Below, in pieces: positions 9,314 through 23,600 of a stretch of 64,000 nt of DNA. Made by a program: the position numbers and the translations under genes. The notes beneath the pieces were generated by a model. The model ran no database searches. It saw nothing but the letters and a program-made list of their open reading frames with translations, and was not told the DNA's origin. This stretch comes from Sinorhizobium sojae CCBAU 05684 (GTDB taxonomy: Bacteria > Pseudomonadota > Alphaproteobacteria > Rhizobiales > Rhizobiaceae): positions 1,364,001 to 1,428,000 of the forward strand of contig NZ_CP023067.1 in NCBI RefSeq assembly GCF_002288525.1, given 5' to 3'. How positions within the stretch are numbered: position 1 is the first letter of the stretch; every line of letters starts with the position of its first letter.

Positions 9314-9390
<77 letters not shown>

Positions 9391-9456: not shown

Positions 9457-9830
9457 TTACAGAATCCATTCCCTAGATGTTCTTTTCATCCGCAAAATAA
9501 CCGCATCGCTGGTCTGCTGATCGGTCGCCAAATAGTGCTTCTCAAGCACTCTTCCCACCTCGGCAATCGAGTGCCCGGTGATCGATCCGATTTGCTCTGT
9601 CGTCGATCCTTCCCGGCGCCGCTCGGTAATGAACGTCCCGCGCAGACCGTGGAACGTCACGCCCCCGATATTCAATTTGGCGCATTCTTTCCCCCACGAT
9701 GTTTTGAACCCGTCCTTCGTCCACGGCCGGCCGTCTTCGGGCCGCCGCGCCAGGCATAATAGTGCACGCGAACCTCTCCGTTCGCCAGCCGGCGCTTGAC
9801 CTTATGAATCCCTTTGACCTTCACGAGCAC
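9457..9830 (-). pseudogene. Tyrosine recombinase (integrase) remnant with internal deletion
   Basis: Two family segments survive. From a GTG at 9830 the frame reads KVKGIHKVKRRLANGEVRVH then YYAWRGGP, a typical rhizobial phage-integrase N-terminus. It then runs directly, in another frame, into the catalytic C-terminus: DGRPWTKDGFKTSWGKECAK, FHGLRGTFITERR (the HxLR box), TGHS and KHYLA with the nucleophile Tyr, to a TAA at 9457. About 130 of the usual 350-400 residues remain, so most of the core-binding and catalytic N-terminal part is deleted and the junction is out of frame. It cannot be active. Confidence 0.8.
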
Positions 9831-12524: not shown

Positions 12525-12713
12525 CTCGCTCACTCTTCCTCCATAAGTTGGCTATCCCCATAGGGGAGATCTATCACAAATCGGAAACTTTTCCCTCTGT
12601 TCGCTTGCCGTAGCCTCTCCAGGGGCCGCACTGATGGGCCGGGGAATCAGGGCGTCTGACGCGGCGGGTCAGGCGGCTTGCATCTGTCCCAAGTGGTCGA
12701 TGTGGCGAGCACC

Positions 12714-12738
12714 GGAACTTTGCAGCCGCAACCTCGTT
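12714..12738 (+). promoter_or_regulatory. EcfG-type stress promoter
   Basis: GGAAC, 16 bases, CGTT: an exact match to the alphaproteobacterial EcfG (RpoE2) consensus, ending 26 bases before the ATG of the 77-residue protein gene at 12765. Confidence 0.75.
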
Positions 12739-12764
12739 AAATCCGCCGTCGGGAGGATTTGCGC

Positions 12765-12998
12765 ATGCCGCCGCCGAAAGAGATGGCTTACGTCTTGACG
12801 ACTCTGCCCTTGAGGACAGGCACCTACGTGCCTGATGATCTCCTTGAGGATTGGTTTGCGCCGGGCGCGGGGATGGACCCGCCTTCGCAAGCAGCTCTGG
12901 CCGAAGCCACTTCCTACGGGCAGCAGTTCGAGTGCGAATTCAAGCACTACCCCGAGCGCAAGGAAGGCGTTTTCTGGAAGTGGGTGCCGGCGATCTGA
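12765..12998 (+). CDS. Hypothetical stress-promoter protein, 77 residues
   Basis: Starts at an ATG preceded by GGGAGGA at seven bases. The product (PPPKEMAYVLTTLPLRTGTY, VPDDLLEDWFAPGAGMDPPS, KHYPERKEGVFWKWVPAI) is soluble with aromatic residues near the C-terminus. No family is recognised. It has an exact EcfG promoter, so induction in general stress or stationary phase is likely. Confidence 0.75.
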   Translation: MPPPKEMAYVLTTLPLRTGTYVPDDLLEDWFAPGAGMDPPSQAALAEATSYGQQFECEFKHYPERKEGVFWKWVPAI

Positions 12999-13043
12999 AT
13001 GGACGCGAAAGTTCCCGCTGTATGATGCCCGCACCCAATCGCC

Positions 13044-13226
13044 TCACATTGGCACTCCGGTGACCGGATTGACCTCGGGCTTTTCGCTACTGTCCTTGGC
13101 GTGAGGAGGCTGCACGACCGGAGGCGCGATCGAACGCTTGTCGGCATCCTTCCTTCGGTCCGCCGGCGGATGGACGTCCTTGGGGCTCGCCTGCTCGGGG
13201 CCGGCATTGGTGTTTTTCGTGGCCAT
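13044..13226 (-). CDS. Small hydrophilic protein, 60 residues
   Basis: The ATG at 13226 follows AAGGAG at seven bases, a strong site. The product (ATKNTNAGPEQASPKDVHPP, ending SSEKPEVNPVTGVPM) is rich in Lys, Pro and Asp and probably disordered, without a signal or membrane segment. Function unknown. No EcfG motif was found upstream. Confidence 0.65.
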   Translation of the reverse strand: MATKNTNAGPEQASPKDVHPPADRRKDADKRSIAPPVVQPPHAKDSSEKPEVNPVTGVPM

Positions 13227-13329
13227 TCTCGTTCTCCTTCCGAAGTAGAACGAGAAAGGGCACCTGTATGTTTCGCCGATTTGATGAACATGCAGCGATG
13301 CGCCCTCGGGGCAGGCGGGCGCTGCAAGG

Positions 13330-13602
13330 TCACTCCTCTTGCTCCTTCCTGGAAGGTGACCGGCGCTCGAGCAATTGTCGGAAGATGTCCGCCTGCTTCT
13401 CGGCGGCGATGCGGATCGCGGCCAGGTGGTCGAGCATCGCGCCGAAGGCGACCAGAAGCAGACCGCCGGCGATTGCCGGAACGACCCAGGGGAGGATTGC
13501 GATGAGGTTGCCGGCATCGGGCGCGGGGACCAGCGTCATCGCCATGAGCAGAATCGTGCCGATCGTGATCGCACCGCCCAGGAACTCGAGAAATTTGCCC
13601 AT
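13330..13602 (-). CDS. Small membrane protein with two helices, 90 residues
   Basis: Two hydrophobic segments, about residues 8-26 (LGGAITIGTILLMAMTLV) and 33-54 (NLIAILPWVVPAIAGGLLLV), are followed by a charged C-terminal helix (IRIAAEKQADIFRQLLERR). GGAGG lies directly before the ATG, which is unusually close. Family unknown. Confidence 0.6.
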   Translation of the reverse strand: MGKFLEFLGGAITIGTILLMAMTLVPAPDAGNLIAILPWVVPAIAGGLLLVAFGAMLDHLAAIRIAAEKQADIFRQLLERRSPSRKEQEE

Positions 13603-13663
13603 CCTCCATCCCCTTGATCAAGCTAAACTACTGCAAGTCGCGCAAACAGTGCGACGCGCTTAC

Positions 13664-13803
13664 CGCATCGGCCCGAACATCGTACCCGATTCTCGGAAAG
13701 CTCGATGCGCAGAGTCAAAGAGTTACAGCGGCCTTTGTGCGTCTGAACAGGTGCGCGGCGCTGTAGCGTCCCTTGTGCTTCCTGAAGGACGCACGGCGAC
13801 GTA
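13664..13803 (+). repeat. RIME-like intergenic element with doubled tail
   Basis: The head CGCATCGGCCCGAACATCG...CTCGATGCG (13664-13709) is a palindrome around GATT. It is followed by a tail palindrome GTTACAGCGGCC...GGCGCTGTA (about 13722-13765) and a second tail copy (13762-13803). Same family as elements at 13953, 44158, 48272, 53091, 57552 and 60970. With no coding sequence it accounts for most of the 350-bp gap between 13603 and 13952. Confidence 0.7.
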
Positions 13804-13952
13804 GTCCGATCCAAAGATAGGAACATGGCGCAATCGACAGCGCTCAGCAATCTTGGGCGCTGACATTTCGCGTGACGCTCCAGGGCGGCGATCGTTTGCA
13901 GGTGGGAGCCCCGGCATTGGCCGGAGTTTGGGAGCGAAAGCGCCAGTCGCGG

Positions 13953-14035
13953 TTACAGCGCCGCGCGTCTTTTCAGACGCGCGTAGGTCGCTGTAGCGTC
14001 GAGCTTTCCGAATATCGGCTTTGGGCCGATGCGCT
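13953..14035 (-). repeat. RIME-like element, inverted copy
   Basis: Tail palindrome TTACAGCGCCGCGCGTC...GTCGCTGTA followed by the head half GAGCTTTCCGAATATCGG...CCGATGCGC, in reverse orientation to the copy at 13664. It touches the stop codon of the outer membrane protein gene and may act as its terminator or 3' stabiliser. Confidence 0.65.
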
Positions 14036-14681
14036 AGAACCTCACACCGACACCGACCGTGAACTGGTGCTGGTCGAGATCGACGTCGAAGCCGCCGATA
14101 TCCTTTTCGCCATAGTCGTTGTAGCGATACTCTGCGCGGCCGAACATGCTGTCGGTGAAGGTGTAGTCTATGCCGCCGCCGATGGTCCAGCCGTTGAAGG
14201 TCTCCTTCTCCTTCGGTGCCCCGTCAACGTCGACAAAGCCGCGCGTCACGGCCCAGCCGCCGGTCGCATAGAGAAGAGCCCTGTCGTTGAACGCGTAGCC
14301 GACCCGCCCGCGCACCGATCCGGAGACATCGGTGCCGGCCTCGGCGCTCGTGCCGAATAGGGTAAAGCTCTCATCGTTCCAATTGTAGCTGACGTCTCCC
14401 TCGACGCCGACGACCCAATCGCCCATCTGGTGGTTGTAGCCGGCAAAGGCACCGAAAATGCCGCCATTGAAATCTTCCGAAACGCTGTCGCCGGGAACGC
14501 TGAGATCGCCGTCGAGCCATCCGCCCCCGCCCTGAAGACCGACATAACCCCCCGTCCAGACGAAGGTTGGCACCGTCTCGACGACCGGAGCAGGCGCTGG
14601 CGTTTCTATGATATCCGCCGCATGAGACGTGCCCGCGACAACAGCAGCGCCAAACATGGCAACAAGCACATTTCTGATCAT
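14034..14681 (-). CDS. Outer membrane beta-barrel protein (Omp25/Omp31-like)
   Basis: From the ATG at 14681 (AGGAGAC at eight bases) the product has 215 residues. A Sec signal peptide ends GTSHAADI (about residue 22), followed by a Pro-rich linker and an eight-strand-type barrel: TFVWTGGYVGLQGGGGWLDG, GGIFGAFAGYNHQMGDWVVG, GWTIGGGIDYTFTDSMFGRA, and C-terminal QFTVGVGVRF ending in Phe as outer membrane proteins do. Omp25/Omp31 relatives are abundant surface porin-like proteins in Rhizobiales. The longer open frame to 14753 is rejected because it puts residues before the signal peptide. Confidence 0.9.
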   Translation of the reverse strand: MIRNVLVAMFGAAVVAGTSHAADIIETPAPAPVVETVPTFVWTGGYVGLQGGGGWLDGDLSVPGDSVSEDFNGGIFGAFAGYNHQMGDWVVGVEGDVSYNWNDESFTLFGTSAEAGTDVSGSVRGRVGYAFNDRALLYATGGWAVTRGFVDVDGAPKEKETFNGWTIGGGIDYTFTDSMFGRAEYRYNDYGEKDIGGFDVDLDQHQFTVGVGVRF

Positions 14682-14777
14682 CACAGATGTCTCCTGTCGT
14701 CCGGCTCCGAAGAATAACAACTGTAGAACGGCGAGTCTGCCAAAAACCGTCACCGGGGCGAATCACTTGTCTTCGCA

Positions 14778-14815
14778 TTAAAAAAATCGGGCCGGCTAAT
14801 GGGATGGCCGGCCCG
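14778..14815 (-). terminator. Strong minus-strand terminator with no minus-strand gene before it
   Basis: Stem CGGGCCGGC/GCCGGCCCG with an approximately 10-base loop, followed on the minus strand by seven T residues (plus-strand A-run 14780-14786). The only gene close upstream on that strand would have to lie between 14816 and the divergent regulator at 14946, where no protein gene is visible. Confidence 0.65.
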
Positions 14816-14890
14816 TCCCGGCAGATGTGCGGAGAGGGGAACGTCTCTCGGCAGGCCGAATGGCCCGCGAAGGAGATCGATTGCCCACCG
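14778..14890 (-). ncRNA. Candidate small RNA ending at the orphan terminator
   Basis: Between the regulator gene and the terminator the minus strand can fold into two further short hairpins (GGCC-ATTC-GGCC, and GAGA...TCTC with a CGTTCCCC loop). A weak TTGAAA/TATCGG pair lies just upstream (about 14884-14912). The start is estimated, not seen. Alternatively the terminator belongs to a lost gene. Confidence 0.25.
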
Positions 14891-14914
14891 ATAATGCCCT
14901 AAGAGCGCTTTTCA

Positions 14915-14946
14915 AGTTGACATAACCCGTAAGCAATTTGACATTA
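14915..14946 (+). promoter_or_regulatory. Direct repeat before the GlxA-type regulator, likely operator
   Basis: AGTTGACATAA (14915-14925) and ATTTGACATTA (14936-14946) match at 9 of 11 positions and are 21 bases apart, two helical turns, the geometry of AraC-family operators. The second copy runs onto the first ATG, so binding would block transcription or initiation there. Confidence 0.45.
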
Positions 14947-15941
14947 TGCGCATGGCTGCAAAAGCGGAAAGGGCATCTGCCATCGAGATCGTGGTGGTCA
15001 TTCTGCCCGAATCCTCGATCATGTCGCTCGCCTCCGTCCTGGATCCGATGCGCGCCGCCAATCGCGTGGCCGGCCGCCAGGTCTTCAGGTGGCGCCTCTT
15101 GTCCGGCGATGGTCAGGCGGCGATGCTCACCTGCGGCCTTCCGGTTGCCGTCGACGGTCGTTTCTCCCCTCCGCTCGCAGGCGACGTTCTTCTGGTGATT
15201 GGCGGCTTCAACCTTGAAAGGCATACAGGAAAGCGTTTCTTCGCGACCTTGCAGGAATGTGCCCGCCATTTCGATGTGGTCGCCGGCATCGAGTCCGGCT
15301 GCTGGCTGCTCGGCCGCTCCGGCCTGCTCAACGGCCGCAGGGCGACAGCGCATTGGGAGGAGCTCGAGGACTTCGGCCAGGCCTTTCCGGCGCTGACGGT
15401 GATCGGCGACCGCTTCGTTACGGACGGCAAATATTGGACCTCGGGCGGAGCATCGCCCACTTTCGACATGATGCTGCACCTGATCACCGAAAGGTTGGGG
15501 CCGGCGCTGGCACTCGATGTCGCCAGCATCTTCGTCTACGATCAGATGCACAGCCCGACCGACGTCCAGCCTTTCGTTTCGCTCGGGCGGATCGAGGTGC
15601 GCGACCCTGAACTGGCGGGCGCCATCCGGCTGATGGAACGCACGCTCGAGCGGCCGATGACGGTTGCGGCGCTGGCGCGCCGGCTCGCCATTTCGCAACG
15701 CAAGCTCGAACAGGTCTTCGCGCGCGGGCTTTCGACCAGCCCCGGCGCCTATTATCTGCGGCTGAGATTACAGGTCGCCCACCGCTTGGTGCGGGATTCC
15801 GGCATTCCAATGCGAGATATTGCGCTGCGTTGCGGCTTCGACAGCCTCTCCGCATTCTCGCGGGCCTACCGGCGCGAATATGGCGAAAGCCCGCTCAAGA
15901 TGCGAAGTGCGAACCGCGCCGCGAGCCTTGCGGCGGGGTAG
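14946..15941 (+). CDS. GlxA-family transcriptional regulator (DJ-1/PfpI plus AraC domains)
   Basis: The 331-residue protein has an N-terminal glutamine-amidotransferase-like sensor domain (IEIVVVILPESSIMSLASVL to about residue 190, with GIESGCWLLGRSGLL). A C-terminal AraC/XylS DNA-binding domain has two helix-turn-helix motifs (MTVAALARRLAISQRKLEQV and MRDIALRCGFDSLSAFSRAY). Relatives control catabolism of small nitrogen compounds such as glycine betaine, carnitine or arginine; the ligand here cannot be named. No Shine-Dalgarno is seen at ATG 14946 or 14952. Probably autoregulated through the direct repeat overlapping the start. Confidence 0.88.
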   Translation: MRMAAKAERASAIEIVVVILPESSIMSLASVLDPMRAANRVAGRQVFRWRLLSGDGQAAMLTCGLPVAVDGRFSPPLAGDVLLVIGGFNLERHTGKRFFATLQECARHFDVVAGIESGCWLLGRSGLLNGRRATAHWEELEDFGQAFPALTVIGDRFVTDGKYWTSGGASPTFDMMLHLITERLGPALALDVASIFVYDQMHSPTDVQPFVSLGRIEVRDPELAGAIRLMERTLERPMTVAALARRLAISQRKLEQVFARGLSTSPGAYYLRLRLQVAHRLVRDSGIPMRDIALRCGFDSLSAFSRAYRREYGESPLKMRSANRAASLAAG

Positions 15942-15965
15942 CTGCCGACATTCATAAATCCCCGG

Positions 15966-16271
15966 TCACTTCCGCGCGTGCGACCCGGCATTACCGGCGA
16001 TTGCGCACGCCTCTTCGAATTCCCTTACGGTTTCCTCGGTGTTGTCCTCGGGCAGCACCGCATCGGCCACGTCCTCCGCCGCCGCGGCTTGGCCCTCGTA
16101 GACATAGGACTGGATGTAATAGGCCAGTTCCCCCTTCCACACCTTGCGCCCCTCGATCTGGCGGCAGGCGACCGCAGCTTCGAAATCCGCCTGCAATTCC
16201 TCCATCGTAACCGTTGTCGGAACGACATCCGAAGGTGCCACCAGCGTGGCGATCAGCAGGGCGGTAAACAT
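15966..16271 (-). CDS. Small exported hypothetical protein, 101 residues
   Basis: From the ATG at 16271, preceded by GGAGGAGTCGCA. A hydrophobic start (FTALLIATLVAPSDVVP) suggests export. The mature part is acidic and helical (EELQADFEAAVACRQIEGRK, VADAVLPEDNTEETVREFEE) with two Cys that could form a disulfide. No family is known to me. An exact EcfG promoter precedes it, so it is probably a stress-induced periplasmic protein. Confidence 0.7.
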   Translation of the reverse strand: MFTALLIATLVAPSDVVPTTVTMEELQADFEAAVACRQIEGRKVWKGELAYYIQSYVYEGQAAAAEDVADAVLPEDNTEETVREFEEACAIAGNAGSHARK

Positions 16272-16299
16272 TGCGACTCCTCCGGGGCGACCACCAGGA

Positions 16300-16325
16300 A
16301 ACGGGCGAGCGGTTTCGCTGGTTCC
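16300..16325 (-). promoter_or_regulatory. EcfG-type stress promoter
   Basis: GGAAC (16321-16325 on the minus strand), 17 bases, CGTT (16300-16303), ending 28 bases before the ATG of the 101-residue exported protein. Confidence 0.75.
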
Positions 16326-16470
16326 TAACATAGAGGATGGAATCTCGCTCGGACGGAAGCAGGGATTCGCGATCGGTCGAATTTTGTCGGACGCCGATGT
16401 GTATAGGCCACACTGCAACGGAAAGGGGGCCCCTCGCGAGGCGAAGGGCCCTTATTCTCACGCGTAGTGG

Positions 16471-16875
16471 TTACTGTACAACCTGGACGACCGTGTAGGT
16501 CTCCGGGTCGACGATCACGCGCTTCTGATTGACAACCGCATAGGCGTAAGTGGGGTTTTCAGGAACCGGCGTCAACATCACCGTCCGCGGCAGGGGTTTG
16601 CCGACGACGATCGGCTGTTCGATCGTGATCGTCTCAGCCGGAATCGGCTGCTGCTCCACGTAGGTCACGACCGGTTTCGGCGGCGGAGAGAGGACCGCGC
16701 CAGCGGCCAGACCCACTGCGCCGCCGATGGCCGCTCCAACCGGCCCGCCGATGATCGCGCCGGTGGCGGCTCCGCCCGCGGCGCCGGTCACGGCAGCGTC
16801 ATTATCACCTGCAAGTGCGGGCGCGGCAAAGATACCGGCCGCGATCACAGAAGTTACAAAGATCTTGGCTTTCAT
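16471..16875 (-). CDS. Glycine-zipper DUF1236-like exported protein
   Basis: The 134-residue product starts at 16875 after GGGAG. A signal peptide (KAKIFVTSVIAAGIFAAPAL, cleavage near ALAGD) precedes a glycine-zipper membrane segment (GGAATGAIIGGPVGAAIGGA, about residues 34-62). A C-terminal DUF1236-like domain reads IVVGKPLPRTVMLTPVPENP and VNQKRVIVDPETYTVVQVVQ. A clear paralogue lies at 20926-21327. Probably envelope-associated; biochemical role unknown. Has an EcfG-like promoter. Confidence 0.85.
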   Translation of the reverse strand: MKAKIFVTSVIAAGIFAAPALAGDNDAAVTGAAGGAATGAIIGGPVGAAIGGAVGLAAGAVLSPPPKPVVTYVEQQPIPAETITIEQPIVVGKPLPRTVMLTPVPENPTYAYAVVNQKRVIVDPETYTVVQVVQ

Positions 16876-16907
16876 CTGTCGTACTCCCTTGCTATTCACG
16901 CCAGTAA

Positions 16908-16932
16908 AACTCTGATGGATTTCATTTGTTCC
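16908..16932 (-). promoter_or_regulatory. EcfG-like stress promoter (one mismatch)
   Basis: GGAAC, 16 bases, AGTT on the minus strand, ending 32 bases before the DUF1236-like gene. Fits the Sinorhizobium RpoE2 form GGAAC-N18-TT. Confidence 0.55.
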
Positions 16933-17196
16933 TTTATTTTGCTTTCGCGATGGAAAGCATGTAATAGTAACTTGCTGTTACTTGGTGGAATAAACTGTGA
17001 ATACGAGCATATTTGAGGCTGCCATTCTGTGGTGGCAACGTGGGGGTTCCGGTCCACCAGTGAACGCCATGCGGATGCCCTTCCGGCCATGCGCCTCTCC
17101 ACGGCACAATCCCCCACACGCGGGGCACCGCACTCGCGCCGCCCCTGCGAAGACCTATAAATTCGAAGCGCTATATTTTTTCGGCCGCAGCCGAAC

Positions 17197-17271
17197 TCAG
17201 CCCAGGCCGAAGAACGACAAGATAGCGATCACGATCACGATCAGGCCCACGAGATAAATGATCTGGTTCAT
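17197..17271 (-). CDS. 24-residue single-helix membrane peptide
   Basis: ATG at 17271 preceded by AAAGGAGGCAAC, a near-perfect ribosome site, and an exact EcfG promoter 23 bases upstream. The peptide NQIIYLVGLIVIVIAILSFF, ending GLG, is one continuous transmembrane helix. Very short, but promoter, ribosome site and hydrophobic pattern agree. Similar tiny membrane peptides occur in other rhizobia as I recall. Role unknown. Confidence 0.75.
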   Translation of the reverse strand: MNQIIYLVGLIVIVIAILSFFGLG

Positions 17272-17294
17272 GTTGCCTCCTTTCATGGCACATG

Positions 17295-17320
17295 AACGGG
17301 CGGCGCCACGGGTAGGTTCC
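17295..17320 (-). promoter_or_regulatory. EcfG-type stress promoter
   Basis: GGAAC (17316-17320), 17 bases, CGTT (17295-17298) on the minus strand, directly upstream of the 24-residue membrane peptide. Confidence 0.75.
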
Positions 17321-17486
17321 AAGAAACGGCTGTCAGGGCGGTTGTGTAGGGAGCGTGGCCCTAAGAGCTCAATCGATAATCAAACAAGGAAATGCACCCG
17401 ATGAGAGCTTTTCGAGCTTTTCGAGCCTATGCTCGCAATAGTGCACGTAAGTGTCGTGTCGTGCTTGGCCGCGCCTTGCGCGTCGC

Positions 17487-17717
17487 TCACCTCGTCACCT
17501 CATCTTGGCGCTCTTGGCAGGGTGCCCAGCCTCTGGTGAAGCCGACGCTCATCGCAATCTGAGCCAGCGCCAATTGCTCGCGCAGATGCTTGCAGTCGGC
17601 GAGGAGTGTCCGGATTGTCGCTTCCGCGTCACCGCCGTGCCAGGCAAGTGCTGACGCGACCTCATCCATCCATGCGTCGAATTCCTCGATCTCGGAAGTT
17701 TGCTTCTCAGCAGACAT
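17487..17717 (-). CDS. Small hypothetical protein, 76 residues
   Basis: The ATG at 17717 follows GAAGGAGACGTC. The product is soluble and mostly helical (SEIEEFDAWMDEVASALAWH, TIRTLLADCKHLREQLALAQ). No family recognised. It lies 107 bases after the last gene of the ku operon in the same direction and could be cotranscribed. Confidence 0.6.
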   Translation of the reverse strand: MSAEKQTSEIEEFDAWMDEVASALAWHGGDAEATIRTLLADCKHLREQLALAQIAMSVGFTRGWAPCQERQDEVTR

Positions 17718-17824
17718 GACGTCTCCTTCTCCGCGCTCGCACGAAGTCCTTTGCCCCGCAGATTCTCAGATTGGCGATTGCACCGCCGATGCATGTTCTT
17801 ATTATGTTCTCATCGTCGCTGGAG

Positions 17825-18088
17825 TCAATGCGGCGCCCAATACTGCTTTTCTCTTTCCAACAGCCCAACAGCTTGCGCTTGCATGTCGAGGCACAAACTC
17901 TCGTACCAAGGAATATAGGCTTCTCGGGCGGGATCTTTGCGCAGCTCCTCGATCTTCATCGCCGCAACCGCATACGACTCGAAAAGCCGGTCTAGCTCGG
18001 GGCTTTTTACCGAGCGAAGTTGCTCTTGATGAAGGGGCAGAGCCAGAGCCAAGCGGGCTCTGCCGTTGCGCATTAATGACATTCCCAT
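17825..18088 (-). CDS. Hypothetical third gene of the ku operon, 87 residues
   Basis: The open frame overlaps the end of the downstream ku gene; a TTG at 18103 shares bases with the ku stop, and ATGs lie at 18088, 18082 and 18073. The start is uncertain; 18088 is given. The product is helical (SPELDRLFESYAVAAMKIEE, REAYIPWYESLCLDMQAQAV). No known domain. The overlap argues for translational coupling with ku and possibly a role in the same process. Confidence 0.5.
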   Translation of the reverse strand: MGMSLMRNGRARLALALPLHQEQLRSVKSPELDRLFESYAVAAMKIEELRKDPAREAYIPWYESLCLDMQAQAVGLLEREKQYWAPH

Positions 18089-18099
18089 CACTGTTGCGG

Positions 18100-18918
18100 T
18101 CAAGAGGCCTTGCGGCCCGGCTTCTTGCCTTCGAGGCTTTGCTTTAGAGCCGACATCAGGTCAATGATGTTTCCTCTCTCTGCCGGTTCTGCGCCGCCTT
18201 TGGGCTTGGCGGCCTTGACGGGCTTCGTCGCCTTCCGCTTCTTCTCGATGATCTCGAGTAGTTTTTCCTGGACAGGGTCGCGGACCATGTTGGTCGTCCA
18301 CGGTTTCCGCTGTTGCTCGATGAGCTTGACGATCAGCGGCAGCATCTCCGGGTCGGCCTTCTCGTCAATGTCCTCGAAATAGGCTTCCTCCTTGCGAACC
18401 TCGTCGCCGTACCGGAGTGTCCACACAACGATGCCCCTGCCGCATGGCTCCAGCATCACGGCTCGCTCTCGGCGACCGATCACCAGCCGCGATATGCCGA
18501 CGACTTTCTCCGCTACCATGGCATCGCGGATCACGCTGAATGCTTCGTGGCCGACCTCGTCCGAGGGCGACAGGTAATGCGGCTTCTCAAGCCAGATCCA
18601 TTCGATGCTGTCGCGCGGAACGAACTTTTCGATGTCAATGGTCCTGACACTTTCGAGCGCCACACTTTTCAACTCCTCATCCTCGATCACAAGGAAGTCG
18701 TTCTCGCCGCGTTCATAGCCTTTTGCCTCGTCGTCGTCGTCCACGTCCTTACCGGTGACGGAGTCCACATACTTTGAGACGATCCGGTGGTTTGTCTTTC
18801 GGTTCAGGGTGTGGAAGCGGACCTTCTCTGACTCGCTGGTCGCAGGCATCATCGAAACCGGGCAGGTGACGAGCGAAAGTTTCAGGTAGCCTTTCCAGTA
18901 AGAACGTGGGGGCGCCAT
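18100..18918 (-). CDS. ku: Non-homologous end joining protein Ku (second of pair)
   Basis: A 272-residue bacterial Ku. The core beta-barrel runs from YWKGYLKLSLVTCPVSM through FHTLNRKTNHRIVSKYVDS and GYERGENDFLVIEDEELKSV to MLEPCGRGIVVWTLRYGDEV. A basic tail (about 225-270, Lys/Arg/Pro-rich) may bind DNA or recruit LigD. Ku rings clamp double-strand ends and recruit the ligase-polymerase. It starts 13 bases after the upstream ku stop, with GGGAGGTGAATC inside the end of that gene. No ligD is in the window. Two non-identical Ku proteins suggest a heterodimer, as described for Sinorhizobium. Confidence 0.93.
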   Translation of the reverse strand: MAPPRSYWKGYLKLSLVTCPVSMMPATSESEKVRFHTLNRKTNHRIVSKYVDSVTGKDVDDDDEAKGYERGENDFLVIEDEELKSVALESVRTIDIEKFVPRDSIEWIWLEKPHYLSPSDEVGHEAFSVIRDAMVAEKVVGISRLVIGRRERAVMLEPCGRGIVVWTLRYGDEVRKEEAYFEDIDEKADPEMLPLIVKLIEQQRKPWTTNMVRDPVQEKLLEIIEKKRKATKPVKAAKPKGGAEPAERGNIIDLMSALKQSLEGKKPGRKAS

Positions 18919-18930
18919 GATTCACCTCCC

Positions 18931-19848
18931 TCAGCTTGCGCGGCGATGCGGAGTGGACGCTCGCTTCGCCTTCGCTGCTGTCTTCGCTTTTGCTGCGGTC
19001 GAGCGGGCAGTCTTCGCTCTGCCCTTGGCCGCACCTGCCTTCGCGGTTCGCCGCTTCGGCTCGGACGCTGCCTTTATGCCGGCGCTCTGGCGCAGAGCCT
19101 CGAGCAGTTCGTTGGGTTTAGAGACCTTCGGCGGCGCGCGTGTCGGCAGGGCCTTGCCTTCGAGCTTAGCCTTGACCAGTTCGGCGAGCGCAGCCTCGTA
19201 CCGGTCGTCGAACTCCTCGGCCGAGTACGTGCCCTTCTTCATGCCGATGATGTGCTTTGCAAGGTCAAGCATCTCGCCTTCGATCTTCATCTCCGGAATT
19301 TCCTTGAAGGCGTCTTTCGCGCTTCGCACCTCGTATTCGAAGTTCAGCGTGGTGGCGATCAGCCCTTTCCCGTGCGGCCGCACAAGGACGGTGCGCACGC
19401 GCCGGAAAAGGACCGCTTGCGCAATTCCGGCGACCTGCGTCTTCCGCATGCCGTCGCGCAGAAGAGTGAAGGCCTCAGCACCCATCTTGTCCGGCGTCAA
19501 ATAATAAGGCTTGTCGAAGTAGACCTTGTCGATTTCGTCACAGGTGATGAAAGCCTGGACGCGCAGTGTCTTGTCGCTCTCCGGGACCGCCGACTTCACT
19601 TCCTCGGGATCAAGAACGACATATCTGTCCTTGTCGATTTCGTAGCCCTTGACCTGGTCGTCTTTCTCCACCGTATTGCCGGTTTCGCTGTCGACAAATT
19701 CGCGCTTCACCCGGTTTCCGGTGGCTCGGTTGACGGTGTGGAAGGAGATCCGCTCTGAGGTCGAGGTGGCTGTGTAGAGCGCCACCGGCGCGGTCACCTC
19801 ACCAAATTTGAGATAGCCCTTCCATTGGGCGCGTGCCGCGGCTGCCAT
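18931..19848 (-). CDS. ku: Non-homologous end joining protein Ku (first of pair)
   Basis: A 305-residue Ku: QWKGYLKFGEVTAPVALYTA, FHTVNRATGNRVKREFVDSE, GYEIDKDRYVVLDPEEVKSA, VLVRPHGKGLIATTLNFEYE. It has an unusually long Ala/Lys C-terminal tail (about 250-305, KAKTAAKAKRAS) like the DNA-binding lysine-rich extensions of some mycobacterial Ku proteins. The ATG follows CAGGAG. First gene of an operon with the second ku and an 87-residue hypothetical, behind an EcfG-like promoter, so end joining is probably raised in starvation or general stress. Confidence 0.93.
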   Translation of the reverse strand: MAAAARAQWKGYLKFGEVTAPVALYTATSTSERISFHTVNRATGNRVKREFVDSETGNTVEKDDQVKGYEIDKDRYVVLDPEEVKSAVPESDKTLRVQAFITCDEIDKVYFDKPYYLTPDKMGAEAFTLLRDGMRKTQVAGIAQAVLFRRVRTVLVRPHGKGLIATTLNFEYEVRSAKDAFKEIPEMKIEGEMLDLAKHIIGMKKGTYSAEEFDDRYEAALAELVKAKLEGKALPTRAPPKVSKPNELLEALRQSAGIKAASEPKRRTAKAGAAKGRAKTARSTAAKAKTAAKAKRASTPHRRAS

Positions 19849-19886
19849 GACTCACTCCTGACGCAATTGCGTGAACTGAGCGAGTC

Positions 19887-19912
19887 AACCGAATCACTTT
19901 CGCCTTTGTTCC
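19887..19912 (-). promoter_or_regulatory. EcfG-like stress promoter of the ku operon (one mismatch)
   Basis: GGAAC (19908-19912), 17 bases, GGTT on the minus strand, ending 38 bases before the first ku ATG. Fits GGAAC-N19-TT, a form accepted for Sinorhizobium RpoE2. Confidence 0.6.
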
Positions 19913-19932
19913 GATTTGAGAAACGAATATTT

Positions 19933-20124
19933 TCAAGGATATTCTAAATTATCCTCAAGGCGGATGGACGCGGTCTCGCTACCTTCGTCCGGCTCATGGA
20001 AGGGCAGAAAGCCGTATTGCTCGAGCCACTCGCGAACGAAGAGGCGGATTGCCTCGTCTCGCGTTATCTGAAGTTGTTCGCAGGCGACAGCGAGCGCCGC
20101 CTCAATGGTCTCGTCAAAGGTCAT
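19933..20124 (-). CDS. Small helical protein, 63 residues, possibly ribbon-helix-helix-like
   Basis: The ATG at 20124 follows TAGGAAAAACGA. The product (TFDETIEAALAVACEQLQIT, RDEAIRLFVREWLEQYGFLP) has two predicted helices with an acidic C-terminus. The helix-turn-helix spacing recalls antitoxin-like proteins, but no beta strand or toxin neighbour is visible. Family not recognised. Confidence 0.55.
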   Translation of the reverse strand: MTFDETIEAALAVACEQLQITRDEAIRLFVREWLEQYGFLPFHEPDEGSETASIRLEDNLEYP

Positions 20125-20366
20125 TCGTTTTTCCTACGCACTACAAAGCACCAGCCGAGCCCCAGAGCTTGCCCAGTGGGATGCGGGGGCGATGGCTCTG
20201 GGGCCGCTGGCCCACGCCGGAGGGGGACTCTGCCGACGCGGATTCTTATGGATTGAGGGTCTCACAGAGCACGCCACGGTCAAGGATTAGGGGTATCACT
20301 CAAACGGAGTATTTGATTTCATTGGTCTTTCCGCCATTCTGGGACCAGCCGAGGAGGGGCAGGTGG
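20125..20366. other. Stretch without a recognised gene
   Basis: No EcfG motif, palindromic repeat, tRNA or protein-like frame with a ribosome site was seen here. It precedes a doubtful small membrane protein frame. Confidence 0.3.
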
Positions 20367-20606
20367 GTGATATTCGATCAGGAGACGGTTCTCGGTCTGT
20401 TAGCTGGCATCGTCGTTGGATTGCCGGCCTACTTTGCGGCGTCAGCCTTTACTCGCCGTGGTCGACCTGCACATGCGCCGCAGAGATTGCCGCTGCGCAG
20501 GAAGCATAGAGTTCGATTCCCAGCGTCGCCGTTGCCGCGGCAATTGCTGTGGTTCTGCTCAGAGGACGTGGCGCGGGAAGCCGGATGGCGGAACGCGTAT
20601 CGCTGA
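20367..20606 (+). CDS. Possible small membrane protein with GTG start, 79 residues
   Basis: A GTG at 20367 is preceded by GAGGAGGGGCAGG. The frame reads IFDQETVLGLLAGIVVGLPA then YFAASAFTRRG, one convincing transmembrane helix, followed by a very basic tail that looks less natural. It may be a short peptide with a decayed C-terminus, or chance. No family. Confidence 0.3.
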   Translation: MIFDQETVLGLLAGIVVGLPAYFAASAFTRRGRPAHAPQRLPLRRKHRVRFPASPLPRQLLWFCSEDVAREAGWRNAYR

Positions 20607-20925
20607 GGCTCTGCCGACCTGAGCGTTAATGCTCATGGCACGCGCTTCATCGAAGAAACCGCCCGATGAACCGCCCGATGAACCGCCCGATTCCAGCGCC
20701 GCCCGTCGACCCGTGCCGACGCTCGTCGACAAACCGCCGAACGGGGCGGAATGGGAGCGCGATTCACTTTCCCATTCCCAGCGTTCTCAAGAATTTTGGG
20801 AGCCGCCTAAGTTATTGAAAATGAAGGTATTCCCACGTTCACAGCGATTGCCCCTACTACGTAGGGGGAGGCGTCTGGGAACGCCATCCCCCGATAGAGA
20901 AGGAGTAGAACGTGATCAGACGCCG
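20607..20925 (+). other. Low-information stretch with a doubtful frame and a 12-bp tandem repeat
   Basis: A plus-strand frame from ATG 20635 (ARASSKKPPDEPPDEPPDSS) lacks a ribosome site and runs into the antisense of the next gene. Its PPDE repeat comes from 2.9 copies of AACCGCCCGATG at 20657-20691. A CCCCTACTACGTAGGGG palindrome lies near 20850. Nothing else is supported. Confidence 0.3.
20657..20691 (+). repeat. 12-bp tandem repeat, 2.9 copies
   Basis: The unit AACCGCCCGATG is repeated without mismatch. If translated it gives Pro-Pro-Asp-Glu repeats. Confidence 0.7.
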
Positions 20926-21327
20926 TCAGTTAATGACCTGCACAACCGTACGCGACTTCGGCTCCACAATAACCCGCTGCTCGTTAACGACAGCAAATGA
21001 ATATTCCGGCGCCTCGGGAATGGGCGTCAGAACGACTGTTTCCGGAATCGGTTTTCCGACCACTACCCGTTCCTGAACCACAACAGACGAAGGCGCAGGC
21101 ATTTGTTCTACCCGGGTGACTACCTCTGGCGGAGGCGGGGTAAGGGCTCCACCGAGCGTGGCGCCAACCACTGCGCCTACGCCGGCGCCAATCGGGCCGC
21201 CGAGAATGGCGCCCGTTGCTGCTCCACCCACCATGCCTGTAGTTGCGTTTTTGCCATCGCTCTGCTGAGCGAAAGCAGTTCCCGCCACAAGCGTGGCTGC
21301 TGCAGTAACAATCATAAGCTTCTTCAT
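20926..21327 (-). CDS. Glycine-zipper DUF1236-like exported protein, paralogue
   Basis: A 133-residue protein laid out like the one at 16471: signal peptide (KKLMIVTAAATLVAGTAFAQ), glycine zipper (GGAATGAILGGPIGAGVGAV), then VVVGKPIPETVVLTPIPEAP and NEQRVIVEPKSRTVVQVIN. The shared order and C-terminus show duplication followed by divergence. The ATG follows AAAGGATAG. An exact EcfG promoter lies 30 bases upstream. Confidence 0.85.
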   Translation of the reverse strand: MKKLMIVTAAATLVAGTAFAQQSDGKNATTGMVGGAATGAILGGPIGAGVGAVVGATLGGALTPPPPEVVTRVEQMPAPSSVVVQERVVVGKPIPETVVLTPIPEAPEYSFAVVNEQRVIVEPKSRTVVQVIN

Positions 21328-21357
21328 AGTTCTATCCTTTCGTTGAAGTCGCCCGTT

Positions 21358-21382
21358 AACGATAGGGTGCCGAAACAGTTCC
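21358..21382 (-). promoter_or_regulatory. EcfG-type stress promoter
   Basis: GGAAC (21378-21382), 16 bases, CGTT (21358-21361) on the minus strand, upstream of the second glycine-zipper gene. Confidence 0.75.
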
Positions 21383-21497
21383 AGTATTCAGACTTAGGTC
21401 CGACGGAATAACGGCGAAAGACGCAATCACAGTGAGACGTATGGCCTCGCAGTATTTCGGTATCCACCGGATGCTTCGAAATTGAAGGAGAAAATAC

Positions 21498-21713
21498 TTG
21501 ATTAGAAAATCGCATCGCACCCAAGGCGGGCCATTCCCGGGCCGCGGAGCCGCACCCGAGATGAAGCACGACTTCCATCTGCCTCGCGGTCAGCGGGCCG
21601 GTTTTGAGAAGCTGAACGAACTCGCAGCGATGCGGCCGACGGTCGTGGATGCCGGCTCGCTCGTCGCTGCGAACGATAATCGCGCAGGGAAAAAAGAGGA
21701 GAACGCTGCTTGA
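21498..21713 (+). CDS. Hypothetical protein with ANDNR tail, TTG start
   Basis: TTG at 21498 is preceded by AAGGAG at seven bases, and no in-frame ATG lies nearby upstream. The 71-residue product is basic and disordered in the first third and ends SLVAANDNRAGKKEENAA. The ANDNR motif is common in short rhizobial proteins of unknown role. Its TGA overlaps the TTG of the next gene. Confidence 0.5.
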   Translation: MIRKSHRTQGGPFPGRGAAPEMKHDFHLPRGQRAGFEKLNELAAMRPTVVDAGSLVAANDNRAGKKEENAA

Positions 21714-22213
21714 CCAGATCCACCGCAGAACACCGCGCAGCTGTAGAAGCCTGGCGTGCCACAGCACCAAAGCACGACCATCAGATATTTGGCAGGAAGC
21801 TGAAGGCCGAGAAGCCCAGACACCGAGGCCTATCAGAACTGTCAGCGCTGCCTGCAATGCGGAGCCGGCCGAACGGTGTCGCCGAAGGTGTGCCGGCAGA
21901 GCCGGATACGCAGATATCAAGCAACTGGCGCTTGACGCCGGCGAACGACAACAGGCTGCCGGAAGACGGCTTTGGGAATGAGCGCGCCGTGGAGATCATC
22001 CCATCCGAACAAGAACTAGAAAATTCGTTAGCCGAACTCAGCATGAGGTATCGCCAGCAGCCGATGATGCCAGCCGGTGGTCGGCATGAGGCGCAGCGGG
22101 CGAGCAAGGAGATCCATGCTATTCCAGTTGAGGGTGACTTCGTCTACGGCACACACGTCGATGAAGACGGTAACTCCCATAAGGTTATTACCCGCACCCC
22201 TTCACCTTCATAG
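21710..22213 (+). CDS. Hypothetical protein with internal ANDNR motif, TTG start
   Basis: A 167-residue product whose TTG overlaps the previous stop (TTGA), with GAGGAG ten bases before. It contains STAEHRAAVEAWRATAPKHD, then PANDNRLPEDG, and a C-terminal acidic segment with EGDFVYGTHVDEDGNSHKVI. It shares the ANDNR motif with its neighbour, hinting at a common origin or partner. Soluble, no known family. Confidence 0.5.
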   Translation: MTRSTAEHRAAVEAWRATAPKHDHQIFGRKLKAEKPRHRGLSELSALPAMRSRPNGVAEGVPAEPDTQISSNWRLTPANDNRLPEDGFGNERAVEIIPSEQELENSLAELSMRYRQQPMMPAGGRHEAQRASKEIHAIPVEGDFVYGTHVDEDGNSHKVITRTPSPS

Positions 22214-22524
22214 GGTTACGACTTGCGAGAAACTTCCCGCTTCTCCGGTTCGACGCCGTATTCGGCCAACGCCATTTCAGGCAGCATAGCTGTCGCCCCA
22301 CCACCTTCCGGGCGCACAGACTAGTTGCGACGGACGCTCGGCCAGCGATGAGCCGGGCGAAACTATCTGCGAGTTATCCATGGTTCCTCATGGGCATCTT
22401 CGCCGGGATTGGCCACCTGCCACATAGGCAGCGTACCGTCTGCAGCGGTCGGCCATCCCACCTATCGTACCCACCTACGCCTCTCTACGATGCGCACCCT
22501 TGGTGGTCACTTATCAGCCCAACT
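22214..22524. other. Stretch without a recognised gene
   Basis: Only short frames without ribosome sites or protein-like composition. No tRNA, repeat or EcfG promoter seen. Confidence 0.4.
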
Positions 22525-22713
22525 CTAATACCGCCACCTGGGCGGCCGTTTTGCATTATGCTGCAGCTCGGAAGCTGTGGCGAACCGGCCGAATAGCCGA
22601 CGAAGTCGGACCTCTTCTTGTTCACCCAATTGATGTTGTTGGCAAAATTCTCGGACGTTCCAAACCTTGGTAACGGTGTGCTTCGAAAGCTTTTCGGCTT
22701 CGACATGCTCCAT
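22525..22713 (-). CDS. Small hypothetical protein, 62 residues
   Basis: The ATG at 22713 follows GGGAGGAGCAAG, a strong site. The product (SKHTVTKVWNVREFCQQHQL, EEVRLRRLFGRFATASELQH) is basic and helical, ending RPPRWRY, and could bind nucleic acid. No family recognised. The longer frame to 22839 lacks support. A TATAAT-like box lies about 35 bases upstream. Confidence 0.65.
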   Translation of the reverse strand: MEHVEAEKLSKHTVTKVWNVREFCQQHQLGEQEEVRLRRLFGRFATASELQHNAKRPPRWRY

Positions 22714-22887
22714 CTTGCTCCTCCCAGGCAGGTGGACGGTCAGACTATTATACCAAAGTCTAATGAAGCAAGGTCTAAAGTATAACCGATCGCCTTTTTT
22801 CCAATTGCCTGGCGCCACCCTCCTCTTGGCGACGGGCAATCATCGGCAGGTCGAGCGGCTACTCCCTGCCGCTTCTTGTTTCGACTC

Positions 22888-22922
22888 TGAGAAGAAAAGC
22901 CTGCCGCTGAGGACGGCAGGCT
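22888..22922 (-). terminator. Minus-strand rho-independent terminator
   Basis: AGCCTGCCG/CGGCAGGCT stem with a seven-base loop, followed on the minus strand by TTTTCTTCTC. It ends either the DUF3606 transcript, 160 bases downstream of its stop, or a separate small RNA. Confidence 0.7.
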
Positions 22923-22980
22923 AGATCGGGGACGCGTTACCCTGCGATGCGTGGGAGGAAATCGCATCGACTGTTTCTTG
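22888..22980 (-). ncRNA. Candidate small RNA with anti-Shine-Dalgarno loop
   Basis: Upstream of the terminator a CGATGCG/CGCATCG hairpin (22945-22969) presents the loop ATTTCCTCCCA, complementary to ribosome binding sites. A TATAAT box lies at 22986-22991, putting a start near 22979 and giving an RNA of about 90 nt; no good -35 was found at 17 bases. C/U-rich loops of this kind are known in several alphaproteobacterial sRNAs. It could instead be the 3' part of the DUF3606 mRNA. Confidence 0.4.
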
Positions 22981-23082
22981 TATATATTATACGTGCCTAA
23001 AAATAAAGCATTTTCGCAAATGCCTGTCTAGGCGGCACAGCCAAACTGTCAGGTCCGCAATTGGTCGACCTAGTCGCTTACA

Positions 23083-23265
23083 TTAACCGTTCAGACGACT
23101 GGCCGCTTTATCGGCAGCGTCGCGGTCGTTGCCATGCTGCTTGATGATGCGGCGTGCGTCCGCAGCAGTAATGCCGTGCTTCTTTGCGAAATAGGCAACC
23201 TCGTACTTCTGAGTACCTGAGACGAGGCGGCGGTCTGCTGCGGTTTTCGTTTTGTCGTCTGCCAT
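23083..23265 (-). CDS. DUF3606 domain protein
   Basis: A 60-residue protein with the ATG at 23265 after AAAGGAGGCCTTAG. The sequence (VSGTQKYEVAYFAKKHGITA, ADARRIIKQHGNDRDAADKA) matches the DUF3606 pattern, a short helical domain found in rhizobial stress proteins. Function unknown. An exact EcfG promoter lies 29 bases upstream. Confidence 0.85.
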   Translation of the reverse strand: MADDKTKTAADRRLVSGTQKYEVAYFAKKHGITAADARRIIKQHGNDRDAADKAASRLNG

Positions 23266-23294
23266 CTAAGGCCTCCTTTCATTGACTAACGAAC

Positions 23295-23319
23295 AACGCG
23301 GACGGGAATCGCAGGTTCC
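23295..23319 (-). promoter_or_regulatory. EcfG-type stress promoter
   Basis: GGAAC (23315-23319), 16 bases, CGTT (23295-23298) on the minus strand, upstream of the DUF3606 gene. Confidence 0.78.
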
Positions 23320-23524
23320 GTATACAGCCAGAACTGCATGGCACCGCCTCTATGACACTCCAAGATAATGCTAATGGCCGGCTGAAGAGAGCGCGCCGAA
23401 ACTACCACGAGGATTGGATGAAAAGTTCGGGGTCGAACCACCAGCCTTGAGTTAACCGAAGTTCCCGTGGCGACTCGATGCTCCGGCAAAACGCCAAATT
23501 CTTCGCTAAGTGCTTGAAATCTTT

Positions 23525-23600
23525 TGGTGAGCGCGCAGGGATTCGAACCCTGGACCTACTGATTAAAAGTCAGTTGCTCTACCGGCTGAGCTACGCGCTC
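23525..23600 (-). tRNA. tRNA-Lys (TTT)
   Basis: A 76-nt cloverleaf with acceptor GAGCGCG/CGCGCTC, anticodon loop CTTTTAA (TTT) and encoded CCA. Marks the right edge of the accessory stretch. Confidence 0.96.

What the first reader, a model, noticed from the sequence alone, without database searches (positions are those of the whole stretch)
12714..23319. A general-stress-response island: seven EcfG-type promoters within 10.6 kb
GGAAC followed at 16 or 17 bases by CGTT (five exact, two with one mismatch) stands 23-38 bases before the start codons of seven genes: 12765 (+), 16271, 16875, 17271, 19848 (ku), 21327 and 23265 (all -). EcfG/RpoE2 drives the general stress response in Alphaproteobacteria. 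The targets are small or envelope proteins of unknown role plus DNA end joining. Such density, in the gene-poor accessory stretch between tRNA-Arg and tRNA-Lys, suggests a stress-gene cluster gathered or kept as a block. I noticed no motif with this spacing beside the core genes, but I did not scan exhaustively.
Basis: partly seen in the sequence, partly recalled or inferred. Interest (0 to 1): 0.75.

Follow-up and report, generated by a model that had tools for sequence, protein, structure and literature searches.

The report
Stress-response gene island between tRNAs
A 10.6-kb stretch between two tRNA genes of a Sinorhizobium chromosome carries eight neighbouring genes that each have their own switch for the bacterium's general stress programme, about sixty times the normal density, and related species keep or swap stress genes at the same place.

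Summary
All five exact GGAAC-N16/17-CGTT sites of the 64-kb window lie in the stated interval, each 23-30 nt before an ATG with a Shine-Dalgarno sequence; the two one-mismatch sites are there too. An eighth was missed: GAAAC-N17-CGTT, 22 nt before the gene at 13226(-). The same strict test finds 5 genes in 398 kb of evenly sampled chromosome (0.13 per 10.6 kb), against 8 here. Given the chromosome's 20 promoter-placed exact sites, five within 10.6 kb arose once in 200,000 simulations. Across up to 32 Sinorhizobium genomes the -35/-10 letters before each orthologue barely vary while spacers differ by 19-60%. The genome encodes PhyR-NepR-EcfG behind the same motif. These are very probably general-stress-response promoters.

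Two corrections. The stretch is not all accessory: 12.57-17.32 kb is a block kept in most of the genus; 17.32-23.52 kb (ku pair, second DUF1236, DUF3606) is what the nearest relatives lack. And the island is not unique: a second EcfG cluster lies near C1:2.01 Mb.

The tRNA-Arg/tRNA-Lys interval is a hotspot (6.4-209 kb) holding different EcfG-driven cargo in different species; ku probably arrived twice. No transcription data were available.

The parts
9314..9390 (+). tRNA-Arg (tct), left border; its 3' end points into the interval
   Evidence: ARAGORN; Rfam; syntenic in genus relatives
12714..12738 (+). EcfG-type promoter, exact, N16
   Evidence: site with >=8/9 letters in 12 of 14 orthologues
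12765..12998 (+). 77-aa protein, no Pfam/NCBIfam family
   Evidence: orthologues 80-92% in the genus
13249..13274 (-).
   Evidence: GGAAC in other clades; a GAAAC RpoE2 promoter is published for SMc01509
13044..13226 (-). 60-aa hydrophilic protein; a paralogue precedes a ligD elsewhere in the genome
13330..13602 (-). 90-aa hydrophobic protein, no EcfG site found
   Evidence: conserved across the genus
14034..14681 (-). outer-membrane beta-barrel protein; no EcfG site here (a weak one in a related clade)
   Evidence: Pfam OMP_b-brl
14946..15941 (+). DJ-1/PfpI + AraC-type regulator (GlxA-like), no EcfG site
16300..16325 (-). EcfG-type promoter, exact, N17
   Evidence: kept in 12 of 20 orthologues, lost in one clade
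15966..16271 (-). 101-aa probably exported protein, single copy in 32 of 33 genus genomes
16908..16932 (-). EcfG-type promoter, one mismatch (AGTT); exact in 15 of 18 orthologues
16471..16875 (-). DUF1236 protein A with glycine-zipper stretch and probable signal peptide
   Evidence: Pfam
17295..17320 (-). EcfG-type promoter, exact, N17
   Evidence: exact in all 8 orthologues
17197..17271 (-). 24-aa hydrophobic protein MNQIIYLVGLIVIVIAILSFFGLG
   Evidence: a homologue with its own EcfG site in a distant alphaproteobacterium (L069)
17324..23524 (.). segment without counterpart in nearest relative G017 (about 250 nt of it matches G015): ku pair, DUF1236-B, DUF3606
   Evidence: blastn
19887..19912 (-). 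EcfG-type promoter of ku: GGAAC-N17-GGTT
   Evidence: >=8/9 in 7 of 8 Sinorhizobium kuA; exact CGTT in Rhizobium and other genera
18931..19848 (-). Ku A, end-joining protein
   Evidence: Pfam, NCBIfam TIGR02772
18100..18918 (-). Ku B, 12 nt behind Ku A, probably the same transcript
17487..18103 (-). two small ORFs (18103 and 17717) that also follow kuB in S. shofinae, E. aridi or S. saheli
21358..21382 (-). EcfG-type promoter, exact, N16; exact in all 8 orthologues
20926..21327 (-). DUF1236 protein B
   Evidence: Pfam
23295..23319 (-). EcfG-type promoter, exact, N16
23083..23265 (-). DUF3606 protein, 60 aa
   Evidence: Pfam; not found at this locus in relatives
23525..23600 (-). tRNA-Lys (ttt), right border; its 3' end points into the interval and is exactly where collinearity with relatives resumes

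Best explanation
The interval is a tRNA-bounded cluster of general-stress-response genes in a Sinorhizobium chromosome. When stress makes PhyR bind the anti-sigma factor NepR, the freed sigma factor EcfG (RpoE2) directs RNA polymerase to eight separate GGAAC-type promoters, giving eight short transcripts: two DUF1236 proteins, a 24-residue hydrophobic protein, a DUF3606 protein, three other small proteins and the ku pair. Part of the cluster (12.57-17.32 kb) is an old block held under selection in the genus; the rest, including ku, lies in the variable part next to tRNA-Lys, and ku was probably added there already carrying its own EcfG promoter. Ku presumably works with LigD encoded elsewhere. 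Shown: motif, placement, enrichment, conservation, distribution among species, regulator genes. Inferred: actual EcfG dependence in this strain, envelope role of the small proteins, Ku-LigD cooperation, horizontal arrival.
For: Eight sites at 22-38 nt from SD-preceded ATGs and none convincing in the rest of the window. Background 0.13 per 10.6 kb; scan simulation 1 in 200,000. 29 exact placed sites in 268 kb of homologous intervals against 0.1 for shuffled motifs. Core letters differ 0-5.6% between distinct orthologous sites, spacers 19-60%. PhyR, NepR and an ECF sigma factor at L099 with exact motifs in the divergent region. Same consensus in R. etli and S. meliloti; Ku EcfG-dependent by reporter assay in Sphingomonas melonis; ku-ligD in the Sphingopyxis regulon; GGTT and TGTT -10 boxes occur in that regulon and point changes in the -10 lower but do not abolish transcription. 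ku at this locus only in G000 and G037, in distant clades and at different places in the gene order.
Against: No transcription start or mutant data for this strain. The 77-aa, 60-aa and 101-aa genes have no family and their starts rest on ORF and SD evidence. One clade has lost the site before the 101-aa gene. Another ECF sigma factor (such as the RpoE6 group, whose targets overlap those of RpoE2 in S. meliloti) could share some sites.
Confidence: 0.9

Rival explanations
1. Chance matches of a nine-letter motif in a long gene-poor stretch.
For: The bare motif is at chance level genome-wide (139 against 130 backward), and one-mismatch matches in the window are at chance level.
Against: Placement before genes, shuffled-motif controls and conservation of -35/-10 in up to 18 orthologues.
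Confidence: 0.02
2. The sites are real, but another ECF sigma factor (an ECF26-type RpoE6 or a second EcfG paralogue) is the main user of some of them.
For: RpoE6 and RpoE2 targets overlap in S. meliloti; -10 letters differ between sites (CGTT, AGTT, GGTT).
Against: The published ECF26 consensus is GGAATA/GT, and five sites fit the EcfG consensus exactly.
Confidence: 0.1
3. The clustering is passive: tRNA hotspots collect accessory genes, and many accessory genes of rhizobia are EcfG targets, so no selection for co-location is needed.
For: Interval length varies 6.4-209 kb; both tRNA 3' ends point inward; a second EcfG cluster lies elsewhere; the 20 kb next to tRNA-Lys in G016 and G014 hold no EcfG-driven gene (L131, L133).
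Against: Density is about 60-fold over background, and the core block has stayed together in nearly all sampled species.
Confidence: 0.5

Closest known systems
RpoE2 (EcfG) general stress regulon of Sinorhizobium meliloti (PMC3616915, PMC6180224)
   Same: Same promoter consensus, same PhyR-NepR-EcfG type of control, mostly small proteins of unknown function
   Different: Described as a dispersed regulon of 76-93 directly controlled genes; no tRNA-bounded cluster with eight separate promoters was found in the main texts searched
EcfG-controlled ku in Sphingomonas melonis and ku-ligD in Sphingopyxis granuli (PMC6599016, PMC7083833)
   Same: Ku gene with an EcfG-type promoter
   Different: Here a tandem ku pair without ligD sits inside a cluster of other EcfG targets, with a GGTT -10 box
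Acid fitness island of Escherichia coli (from own knowledge, not tested)
   Same: A compact island of genes for one stress programme under a general stress sigma factor
   Different: No homologous genes shown; different sigma factor; here each gene or operon has its own core promoter, no dedicated local regulator is known, and cargo differs between species

Membership tests
EcfG/RpoE2-dependent promoter | GGAAC -35 and CGTT-like -10 at 16-17 nt | tested here: met
   five exact, three with one mismatch
EcfG/RpoE2-dependent promoter | Located shortly upstream of a gene start and conserved in orthologues | tested here: met
   22-38 nt; conserved in 8 of 8 to 18 of 18 orthologues for the best cases, 12 of 20 for the 101-aa gene; the DUF3606 site could not be compared
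EcfG/RpoE2-dependent promoter | Transcription start just downstream, lost in an ecfG mutant | not testable with these tools
   no expression data held
Alphaproteobacterial general stress response | PhyR, NepR and EcfG encoded in the genome, with motif in front | tested here: met
   L099
Genomic island integrated at a tRNA gene | tRNA border and variable content among relatives | tested here: met
Genomic island integrated at a tRNA gene | Functional integrase and direct att repeats | tested here: not met
   no repeat of a tRNA 3' end found; integrase-like ORF fragments beside tRNA-Arg gave no Pfam match. So the interval is described as a hotspot, not as one intact island
Bacterial NHEJ | Ku plus LigD in the genome | tested here: met
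   two Ku here, a third on C2, three ligase matches over the cut-off elsewhere

The most novel reading that the evidence does not exclude
The tRNA-Arg/tRNA-Lys interval is a regulon-specific docking site: across Sinorhizobium it repeatedly gains and keeps genes that already carry EcfG promoters (ku twice independently; in G004 about 16 genes including DUF892, DUF4142, CsbD and DUF2267 proteins), so that a stress regulon is being assembled in one place by selection rather than by chance insertion.
Probability: 0.4. Interest if true: 0.65.

Novelty: new member of a known kind. Interest (0 to 1): 0.5.

Why it matters
Most EcfG targets in rhizobia have no known function. A compact locus with eight of them, kept or exchanged in the same position across about 32 species, is a natural unit to delete and test for desiccation, salt and DNA-damage survival, and a case for asking whether bacteria assemble stress regulons in hotspots. 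It also links acquisition of Ku-based DNA end joining to the stress programme.

Tried and rejected
Counting the bare motif: uninformative, since genome totals equal those of the backward control. Explaining the cluster by composition: rejected by shuffled-motif controls. One intact mobile element bringing all the genes: rejected, because most genes are old residents of the genus and no att repeats were found. Ku neighbourhoods as carriers of the whole cluster: rejected, since the DUF1236 genes do not accompany ku in the 45 other loci; only single members do (a 60-aa homologue in L034, a 24-aa homologue in L069). The paper on stress-inducible NHEJ in S. meliloti was not held. A first orthologue count contained spurious short matches at locus ends and was redone. 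My simple gene caller misses small genes, so placement was judged by SD + ATG + ORF instead.

Full report
Check of the observation. Each stands 23-38 nt before an ATG preceded by a Shine-Dalgarno sequence. A strict scan adds an eighth, GAAAC-N17-CGTT at 13249-13274(-), 22 nt before the 60-aa gene at 13226; a GAAAC promoter is published for the RpoE2 target SMc01509 (PMC6180224). The rest of the window yields one doubtful hit.

Is it more than chance? The bare motif is not over-represented in the genome, 139 matches against 130 for the backward pattern, so raw counts prove nothing. I fetched all 86 exact sites of the 3.67-Mb chromosome: 20 are promoter-placed against 3.8% of random positions, and five of the 20 are here. 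Simulating 20 random sites gave five within 10.6 kb once in 200,000 trials. An even 398-kb sample of the chromosome contains 5 placed sites with up to one mismatch, or 0.13 per 10.6 kb, against 8 here. Over 268 kb of orthologous intervals (own interval included) the motif has 29 exact placed sites; shuffled motifs have 0.1 on average.

Conservation. The interval between an NDUFS4-like gene with tRNA-Arg and tRNA-Lys with a CcdA-like gene was found in all 16 genus relatives in which both markers were located, at 6.4-209 kb. The 101-aa gene is single copy in 32 of 33 genomes and lies at this locus wherever the region was fetched. For DUF1236-A all 18 copies examined have at least 8/9 letters of the motif; for the 24-aa gene and DUF1236-B all 8 copies have 9/9; for kuA 7 of 8 have 8/9. 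Between distinct sites the core letters differ by 0-5.6% and the spacers by 19-60%. The 101-aa gene has lost its site in a clade of eight, where it lies downstream of DUF1236-A and may be read from that promoter (inference). This is the signature of selection on -35 and -10.

The regulator. L099 (C1:2.467 Mb) encodes an ECF sigma factor, NepR and PhyR, with exact motifs in the region between the divergent units. That this sigma factor is EcfG/RpoE2 rests on those neighbours and on established knowledge of the family.

What is old and what is new. blastn shows this genome collinear with G017 from 12571 to 17323 and again from 23525, the 3' end of tRNA-Lys. The segment 17324-23524, with the ku pair, DUF1236-B and DUF3606, is absent there; about 250 nt of it matches G015. 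DUF1236-B occurs in several other clades, in one of them beside the 24-aa gene, so it may be ancestral and lost in G015 and G017 rather than new here. The ku pair is at this locus only in G000 and G037; a tree of the two conserved core proteins of the locus puts them far apart, with relatives of each lacking ku here, and ku sits on different sides of DUF1236-B in the two. Two independent arrivals is the simplest reading. Most other genus members hold the tandem pair on other contigs, and two small ORFs behind kuB travel with it in S. shofinae, E. aridi and S. saheli.

Other cargo. In G004 the hotspot is 58.5 kb with 16 placed GGAAC sites (controls mean 0.36, maximum 7), mostly with GGTT at -10, before DUF892, DUF4142, CsbD, DUF2267 and other genes. 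A clade including G002, G005, G007, G010 and G034 has here another EcfG-driven DUF1236 protein (about 255 aa) and a 111-aa protein. This genome itself has a second EcfG cluster at C1:2.006-2.016 Mb.

Mechanism. Under stress PhyR binds NepR and frees EcfG, which would transcribe eight units (established for the family; inferred here). EcfG dependence of ku is shown by transcriptomics and reporter assay in Sphingomonas melonis (PMC6599016) and reported for ku-ligD in Sphingopyxis (PMC7083833); the GGTT -10 of kuA fits the -10 flexibility described there. LigD is encoded elsewhere in three copies; one lies just behind a paralogue of the 60-aa gene that has an exact EcfG site, which is consistent with joint induction of Ku and LigD, though not shown.

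Limits. Novelty lies in the arrangement and its evolution, not in the promoters or the gene families. Paper searches found no description of such an island, in a library that lacks most subscription journals.

Noticed in passing
L091:7780-18210 (G000:C1:2005779-2016205): A second group of five exact EcfG sites in 10.4 kb, before a 69-aa protein, a 64-aa lysine-rich protein, a hydrolase, a 199-aa protein and a transporter-like gene: GSR genes cluster elsewhere in this chromosome too.
   Followed up: partly
L132, L153, L178 (genome G004, same hotspot): The EcfG-like promoters of the inserted cargo nearly all have GGTT instead of CGTT at -10, as if the cargo came from one donor lineage or answers a different EcfG paralogue.
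   Followed up: no
L176:2607-2840 and L034:7408-7630: Paralogues of the 60-aa protein at 13226, each with an exact EcfG site, stand next to NHEJ genes: before ligD in this genome, 2.5 kb from kuA in S. saheli. A possible NHEJ-associated small protein.
   Followed up: partly
L069:9070-10774: In a distant alphaproteobacterial MAG a homologue of the 24-aa protein and another small protein, each with an exact EcfG site, lie beside ku.
   Followed up: no
window 22471-22507 (+): Rfam match to abiF RNA (41.7 bits, cut-off 37) with no Abi_2-type gene recognised nearby; possibly chance or a remnant.
   Followed up: no
window 9457-9830 (-): ORF fragments beside tRNA-Arg that read like pieces of a tyrosine integrase (HGLRGTF...GHS...EKHYL); Pfam gave no match at this length.
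   Followed up: partly
window 22525-22839 (-): A small ORF conserved at about 73% DNA identity in G015 and G036 inside the otherwise lineage-specific segment; no Pfam family.
   Followed up: partly
window 13686-14018: Inverted repeats (42 nt, 83%; 23 nt, 87%); similar text occurs intergenically in L091, so this looks like a dispersed repeat.
   Followed up: no
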